Source: Elusimicrobiales bacterium
Lineage (GTDB): Bacteria; Elusimicrobiota; Elusimicrobia; Elusimicrobiales; UBA9959
Reading direction: 5' to 3'
Length of the DNA stretch: 6,822 nt
Assembly (NCBI GenBank): GCA_026419335.1
Contig: JANZZP010000064.1
Coordinates: 1-6,822 of the forward strand
Shown: in pieces, positions 1,507 through 1,858 of the stretch
How the letters are laid out: each line of letters opens with the position of its first letter
Numbering within the stretch: position 1 is the stretch's first letter
The notes under the pieces: model-generated
What the model was told of the DNA's origin: nothing
Databases searched by the model: none
What the model saw: the letters and a program-made list of their open reading frames with translations, nothing else
Translations under genes and position numbers: made by a program

Positions 1507-1844
1507 AAAGTCAGACGGACGATCGCCTAAACATATGTTTAGGAGGAACCTCCGGACTCCGAAGGGAAACCAGCCATCCGTAAGGATGGGGGTGTCGTGG
1601 CGAAAGCCATACACCACGGAAAGTGTAACAGAAAATATACCGCCTATTTTTAGCCAGGCTAAAAATAGGTAAGGGTGAAAAGGCGAGGTAAGAGCTCACC
1701 AAAGACATGGTAACATGTCTTTCTGCAAACCCCTGGTGGAGCAAGGGCAAATATGCTCGATAGATACCTGTCCCGGGGAGAGCAAGGTAGCCCGCATTAG
1801 AGAAATGATCGTCTAAAACAGAATCCGGGGTATGGTCTGACTTT
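1507..1844 (+). ncRNA. rnpB: RNase P RNA, bacterial type A, lacking P18 and with an altered P4
   Basis: Catalytic RNA that removes tRNA 5' leaders. Ends are set by P1 (1507-1516 with 1835-1844, 10 bp). Conserved blocks are in order: GAGGAA at 1543-1548, ACAGAAAATATACCGCC ending at 1643, GGTAAGGGTGAAA near 1668-1680, GGTAAGAG at 1687-1694, GGAGCAAGG near 1739-1747 and ACAGAA at 1818-1823. Helices read by hand: P2 1518-1524/1807-1813; P3 1526-1543, self-complementary; P8 1574-1579/1584-1589 with GTAA loop; P9 1598-1601/1606-1609 with GAAA loop, extended by 1591-1595/1611-1615; P12 1643-1653/1659-1669; P14-like 1701-1709/1714-1722 with GTAA loop; P15 1745-1748/1790-1793 with the CCA-binding GGT at 1786-1788; P16 1755-1758/1780-1783; P6 1564-1567/1771-1774. 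P6 and P16 make it type A. P18 is absent. P4 is 1548-1556/1824-1831 with U1551 bulged. At 338 nt it is compact, and it is about 50% GC. Confidence 0.97.
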
Positions 1845-1858
1845 TTATGGAATAAACT

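What the first reader, a model, noticed from the sequence alone, without database searches (positions are those of the whole stretch)
1548..1831. Compensatory double change in the catalytic P4 helix of RNase P RNA
Seen: the conserved core GAGGAAAGTCC reads GAGGAACCTCC here (1543-1553), and the distal strand after ACAGAA reads TCCGGGGT instead of the usual CCCGGCTT (1824-1831). The two strands still pair perfectly: A1548-T1831, C1549-G1830, C1550-G1829, bulged U1551, then C1552-G1828 through A1556-T1824. Known: the equivalents of E. coli A67 and G68 (numbering from memory), flanking bulged U69, are among the most conserved bases of RNase P RNA and lie at the metal-binding catalytic core. Here the A-U and G-C pairs next to the bulge are both replaced by C-G. 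Because both strands change together, sequencing error or a pseudogene is unlikely. Inference: this lineage tolerates a re-paired active-site helix, possibly with protein or metal-site compensation.
Basis: partly seen in the sequence, partly recalled or inferred. Interest (0 to 1): 0.72.

Follow-up and report, generated by a model that had tools for sequence, protein, structure and literature searches.

The report
Re-paired catalytic helix in RNase P
In a little-known bacterial phylum, two base pairs beside the catalytic bulge of the tRNA-processing ribozyme RNase P have been swapped on both strands, a change seen elsewhere mainly in bifidobacteria, which gives a natural test of what that active site really needs.

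Summary
Window 1507-1848 (+) is a class A RNase P RNA (RF00010, 227.7 bits). In E. coli numbering A67-U359 and G68-C358 are both C-G; A66-U360, bulged U69 and C70-G357 are unchanged. The contig is from Elusimicrobiota; a close relative has the same change on both strands. Of 168 Elusimicrobiota RNAs parsed, all keep A66-U360, U69 and C70-G357; pair 67 is C-G in 107, A×G mismatch in 34, A-U in 27; pair 68 is U·G in 95, G·U in 29, G-C in 26, C-G in 14. In 112 RNAs from four other phyla (Bifidobacteriaceae apart) pair 68 is always G-C. The 30 Bifidobacteriaceae RNAs read all have C67-G359/U68·G358. In Elusimicrobiota the re-pairing fits one origin (AU p 0.80), but one origin of C68 is rejected (p 8e-7). 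Published structures show the metal bound by phosphates of 67/68 and O4 of U69, so pair identity can change if the bulge stays. In a nearest-neighbour model U68·G358 leaves the bulge ambiguous between U68 and U69; C68, as here, fixes it at U69. A probably functional, new variant of a known ribozyme; activity untested.

The parts
1507..1848 (+). class A RNase P RNA (rnpB)
   Evidence: RF00010, 227.7 bits, E 1.2e-73, model 1-367
1548..1556 (+). P4, 5' strand (E. coli 66-74): A66 C67 C68 U69 C70 C71 G72 G73 A74
   Evidence: cmscan alignment; letters
1549..1550 (+). substituted 67 and 68 (A67C, G68C)
1551..1551 (+). bulged U69, retained
   Evidence: U in 168 of 168 Elusimicrobiota RNAs parsed (the parser required U here, and none of the 8 unparsed rows could be shown to differ)
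1824..1831 (+). P4, 3' strand (E. coli 353-360): U C C G G G G U
1829..1830 (+). substituted 358 and 359 (C358G, U359G), partners of 68 and 67
1786..1788 (+). [quoted passage not shown]
   Evidence: aligned with the conserved GGU of the model; role from PMC4264200 and PMC11221534
999..1505 (+). RNase HI gene directly upstream
   Evidence: PF13456 and PF00075; similar DNA upstream of the RNA in L077

Best explanation
This is most likely the working RNase P RNA of an Elusimicrobiota bacterium in which the two P4 pairs on the 5' side of the catalytic bulge have been replaced, A67-U359 and G68-C358 both becoming C-G. Inferred mechanism: the active site needs a helix with a bulged U at 69 that presents the phosphates of 67 and 68 and O4 of U69 to the metal ion; it does not need particular bases at 67, 68, 358 and 359. 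In this phylum the ancestral pairs were replaced by C67-G359 with U68·G358 (a single origin is compatible with the data), and U68 and C68 then interchanged several times; C68, as in the window, gives a Watson-Crick pair that makes U69 the favoured bulge. Shown: the letters, inheritance, pair counts across 168 RNAs, more than one origin of C68. Inferred: that the enzyme is active, the direction of the changes, and that bulge register is what selection acts on.
For: Intact RF00010 match. Close relative with the same strands. P4 table in Elusimicrobiota: A66-U360, U69 and C70-G357 constant in 168 of 168 while 67-359 and 68-358 vary (A66 and U69 were fixed in the parser, so their constancy is partly by construction). 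One RNase P RNA match in the nearest relative's assembly G001, which is 0.8 Mb and may be incomplete, and rnpA present there. Same C67-G359/U68·G358 in 30 of 30 Bifidobacteriaceae RNAs read. RNA trees with 67, 68, 358 and 359 left out: re-paired rows as one clade not rejected (p 0.80), CC/GG rows as one clade rejected (p 8e-7); starred branches force at least 5 changes of the CC/GG label. Mini-helix energies: CU/GG has two equal registers (-14.7 and -14.7 kcal/mol), CC/GG prefers bulged U69 by 3.0 kcal/mol, canonical AG/CU by 4.7. In the E. coli complex the metal contacts the phosphates of A67 and G68 and O4 of U69 (PMC9433436 passage).
Against: No activity data for any of these RNAs. 34 of 168 Elusimicrobiota RNAs have A67×G359 mismatches, so strict pairing at 67 is not required either. 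For the states AU/GG, AG/GG and AA/GG (5 of 168 RNAs) the isolated-helix model pairs U69 with G358 instead of bulging it, and for AG/UG (29 of 168) it gives a weak, open helix. Published mutations that move the bulge strongly reduce catalysis (PMC11221534 passage), which sits badly with 92 of 168 RNAs keeping an ambiguous CU/GG bulge unless tertiary contacts fix the register. The RNA tree is poorly resolved (64 of 167 inner branches open, long-branch and composition warnings), and the groups in the AU tests were tested after a tree had been seen. The nearest-neighbour model ignores metals and tertiary contacts.
Confidence: 0.8

Rival explanations
1. Neutral drift with compensation: the P4 letters at 67/68 are under weak selection in these lineages, and the changes record drift through mismatched intermediates with later repair, without functional meaning for bulge register.
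For: Mismatched states are widespread: A67×G359 in 34 of 168, 29 of them with G68·U358; single RNAs with G×G and A×G at pair 68. Nine combinations occur within one phylum.
Against: Pair 68 is a standard pair in 166 of 168 Elusimicrobiota RNAs, C70-G357 is constant in 168 of 168, and pair 68 is G-C in 112 of 112 RNAs of four other phyla (Bifidobacteriaceae apart); two unrelated groups have the same CU/GG combination.
Confidence: 0.4
2. Relaxed constraint because another RNase P (protein-only HARP) shares the work.
For: HARP-type proteins do occur in the phylum: 4 of 340 genomes over the PF08745 cut-off, the one protein tested matching solved RNA-free RNase P at 3.3e-48. 11 further genomes have weak matches below the cut-off.
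Against: The four HARP genomes have no detectable RNase P RNA, and they are not among the genomes whose re-paired P4 was read; the nearest relative G001 has no PF08745 match.
Confidence: 0.03
3. Pseudogene, assembly chimera or sequencing artefact.
For: The window has no whole genome held, so read support and copy number could not be checked.
Against: Both strands changed together in a full-length model match; same letters in a separate assembly and in 13 other RNAs of the phylum, that one included.
Confidence: 0.01

Closest known systems
Bacterial class A RNase P RNA (RF00010), E. coli M1 type
   Same: Full-length covariance-model match; P4 with bulged U; GGU in L15; conserved ACAGAA before the 3' strand of P4
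   Different: 67-359 and 68-358 are C-G and C-G instead of A-U and G-C; no P18 hairpin (about model 279-301 deleted)
RNase P RNA of Bifidobacteriaceae
   Same: Pairs 67 and 68 also replaced; C67-G359 identical (30 of 30 read)
   Different: Pair 68 is U·G there, C-G in the window; different phylum, so convergent (inference)
RNase P RNA of Streptomyces and some other Actinomycetota
   Same: C67-G359 (L090; 3 of 25 Actinomycetota RNAs)
   Different: G68-C358 retained
Paulinella chromatophore RNase P RNA (PMC4264200; section 4 part 1 of 2 read)
   Same: Natural change of a P4 pair, with activity measured
   Different: Change is at the far end of P4 (their 55-370), not beside the bulge

Membership tests
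Bacterial class A RNase P RNA (RF00010) | Covariance-model score above the curated threshold over the full model | tested here: met
   227.7 against 100 bits, model 1-367
Bacterial class A RNase P RNA (RF00010) | Helix P4 formed by CR I and CR V with one bulged U | tested here: met
   Pairs 66-360 to 74-353 with bulged U1551
Bacterial class A RNase P RNA (RF00010) | Consensus letters A67, G68, C358, U359 (a consensus, not a requirement: also absent in the Bifidobacteriaceae RNAs read, which all score above the threshold) | tested here: not met
   C, C, G, G in the window; Bifidobacteriaceae
Bacterial class A RNase P RNA (RF00010) | RnpA protein partner in the genome | tested here: inconclusive
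   Window genome not held; PF00825 present in nearest relative G001
Bacterial class A RNase P RNA (RF00010) | Cleavage of pre-tRNA at +1 with Mg2+ | not testable with these tools
   needs an assay

The most novel reading that the evidence does not exclude
Many re-paired RNase P RNAs (92 of 168 Elusimicrobiota RNAs parsed, the 30 Bifidobacteriaceae RNAs read, and a viral-contig RNA with GU/GC) have a register-degenerate catalytic bulge in which U68 or U69 can be the unpaired, metal-binding uridine. Two distant bacterial groups converged on it, and lineages such as the window's repeatedly removed the ambiguity with C68. The bulge would then be a position that can slide in nature, contrary to what mutations in E. 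coli suggest.
Probability: 0.3. Interest if true: 0.7.

Novelty: new variant of a known kind. Interest (0 to 1): 0.52.

Why it matters
P4 is described as the most conserved region of RNase P RNA and as the site of the catalytic metal (PMC10731613 passages). A phylum that holds canonical, mismatched, wobble and Watson-Crick re-paired versions of the same two pairs is a natural series for asking which features of the active site are chemistry (bulged U, phosphates) and which are history. It also warns that searches with the motif AAGTCCG, as used for plastid genes in PMC4264200 (passage), would miss such genes.

Tried and rejected
Exclusive lineage marker: my genome-wide pattern first suggested only Elusimicrobiota and four Bifidobacterium species; the family search showed that the pattern's right-hand context had missed other Bifidobacteriaceae, so one search is a lower bound and other lineages may have been missed too. 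Second canonical copy: one match in G001, a 0.8 Mb assembly; two copies exist in G291, AA/GG and AG/UG. HARP redundancy: not supported. A linked change in J18/2: the motif AGAGAAATG occurs in 6 of 26 canonical, 25 of 29 AG/UG, 18 of 92 CU/GG and 10 of 14 CC/GG RNAs; uneven, but kinship was not corrected for and I draw nothing from it. Order of the strand changes: mismatched states make a 3'-strand-first path plausible, but the tree backbone does not resolve it, so I do not claim it. One origin of C68: rejected. Prior reports: searches listed nothing whose title or abstract start describes this in Elusimicrobiota or Bifidobacteriaceae; the five papers were not opened. I read passages of eight papers and one section part, none in full. 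Two classical P4 papers asked for are not held, so earlier notice cannot be excluded.

Rows dropped before counts: 8 of 176 Elusimicrobiota rows (L175, L176, L178, L179, L180, L185, L262, L263; L179 and L185 read canonical at 67/68). From the other phyla: the Bifidobacterium centre genome L089 (CU/GG), which the Actinomycetota draw contains; the fragment L413; two Pseudomonadota matches without a locus (G523, and a fragment in G511); and 5 unparsed loci of 117 (L348, L352, L353, L383, L424). The parser fixed A66 and U69, so rows with another base there could not have been counted.

Full report
What is there. The window encodes, on the + strand, a zinc-ribbon protein, RNase HI, a class A RNase P RNA at 1507-1848, and a small ORF without Pfam match; on the - strand are an inositol monophosphatase family gene, a long ORF without Pfam match, a methyltransferase and a carbamoyltransferase. 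The RNA matches RF00010 over the whole model (227.7 bits, threshold 100). In E. coli numbering 67-359 and 68-358 are both C-G.

Whose it is. No genome is held for the window. A scan of a collection described as 84,980 species genomes for double changes at 67/68 in a fixed context found 85 stretches. Together with the two viral stretches, 57 of 87 have the matching 3' strand: 53 CU/GG, 3 CC/GG, 1 GU/GC. By titles, the 56 genome cases are 45 Elusimicrobiota, 7 'uncultured bacterium' and 4 Bifidobacterium. Of the 30 others, 4 are cut by the edge of the stretch held, and the other 26 hold no RNase P RNA over threshold in that stretch. The nearest relative is L077, an Elusimicrobiales genome (G001): its RNA is 92% identical over 289 columns, the upstream DNA with the end of the RNase HI gene is similar, and it has the same CC/GG.

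The phylum. 340 genomes of the phylum of G001 were searched and 290 have a match; one more, G181, was found with laxer filters. I read 175 loci from that phylum (best-scoring ones plus hand-picked weaker ones, so not a random sample) and the window; 168 of these 176 could be parsed. C70-G357, A66-U360 and U69: 168 of 168 (A66 and U69 were fixed in the parser). Pair 67-359: C-G 107, A×G 34, A-U 27. Pair 68-358: U·G 95, G·U 29, G-C 26, C-G 14, U-A 2, G×G 1, A×G 1. By combination: CU/GG 92, AG/UG 29, AG/CU 26, CC/GG 14, AU/GG 3, and one each of AG/GG, AA/GG, CU/AG and AU/AU. The window is one of the 14 CC/GG RNAs.

Outside the phylum. In samples drawn evenly from four phyla (Actinomycetota, Pseudomonadota, Acidobacteriota and Bacteroidota by the titles of their centre loci), 112 of 117 loci were parsed: 25, 29, 29 and 29. 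Pair 68-358 is G-C in 112 of 112; pair 67-359 is A-U in 107, C-G in 3, G-C in 2. The Actinomycetota draw also contains its centre, a Bifidobacterium with CU/GG (L089), left out of this count. Of the 5 not parsed, L383 looks canonical at 67/68, L348 is truncated with a canonical 5' strand, L352 and L353 are odd (below; all), and L424 was parsed as canonical by an earlier script. In Bifidobacteriaceae 119 of 121 genomes have a match, and the 30 best-scoring RNAs, the only ones read, are all CU/GG. Two unrelated groups thus share C67-G359 with U68·G358.

History. RNA trees were built without columns 67, 68, 358 and 359. In the tree (167 rows: 164 Elusimicrobiota rows and 3 outgroup rows; the longest row L155 and two outgroup rows left out), holding the 104 re-paired rows together gives a better likelihood than the free search, which had them in two groups (AU p 0.80), so one origin is compatible. 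Holding the 14 CC/GG rows together is rejected (p 8e-7), and starred branches force at least 5 changes of that label. U68 and C68 therefore interchanged repeatedly, the window's clade (4 rows, 99*) being one case. The deep order of canonical and mismatched states is unresolved.

How it likely works. In the E. coli complex the inner-sphere metal contacts the phosphates of A67 and G68 and O4 of U69 (PMC9433436, passage). None of these is a base of the swapped pairs, so swapping is compatible with catalysis if the helix and the bulge keep their geometry. In a nearest-neighbour model of the isolated helix, bulged U69 beats the alternative by 4.7 kcal/mol in the canonical form and 3.0 in CC/GG, but in CU/GG bulged U68 and bulged U69 are equal; in the rare AU/GG, AG/GG and AA/GG forms the model pairs U69, and in AG/UG the helix is weak. 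Published mutations that move the bulge strongly reduce catalysis (PMC11221534, passage). Either tertiary contacts hold U69 out in CU/GG enzymes, or the bulge really slides; the window's C68 removes the question. This last step is inference from a simple energy model.

Alternatives tested. One RNase P RNA match in G001, a 0.8 Mb assembly. rnpA found in 33 of 39 Elusimicrobiota genomes searched. The four HARP genomes are not among the genomes with re-paired RNAs read, and have no detectable RNase P RNA.

Verdict. The feature is real, inherited and compensated. It is a new variant of a known ribozyme rather than a new system. Its value is as a natural series for testing the RNase P active site.

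Noticed in passing
L444 1489-2115 (+), L445; genomes G166-G169: Four Elusimicrobiota genomes encode a HARP-type protein-only RNase P (PF08745 over cut-off in 4 of 340; the L444 protein, the only one compared, matches RNA-free RNase P structures at 3.3e-48) and have no detectable RF00010 RNA. The bacterial orders listed in a passage of PMC12153264 do not include this phylum. rnpA was not tested in them.
   Followed up: partly
L086 4070-4332 (-), viral contig IMGVR_UViG_3300020122_000057: A viral contig carries an RNase P RNA (131.8 bits) among 22 tRNA genes, with G67-C359/U68·G358 in P4 and a DNA-polymerase-like ORF nearby (judged by eye). No similar DNA found in 50,697 phage records.
   Followed up: partly
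   Followed up: no
L344, L346, L347 (Actinomycetota draw), L396, L400 (Acidobacteriota draw): P4 pair 71-356 is flipped from C-G to G-C (3 of 25 and 2 of 29 RNAs; letters).
   Followed up: no
L131 and L264 (genome G291): One genome holds two RNase P RNAs with different P4 states, AA/GG and AG/UG; a mixed assembly is possible.
   Followed up: no
window 1791-1800: The P18 hairpin is missing in the window RNA (about model 279-301 deleted) and in 4 of the 8 Elusimicrobiota RNAs aligned.
   Followed up: no
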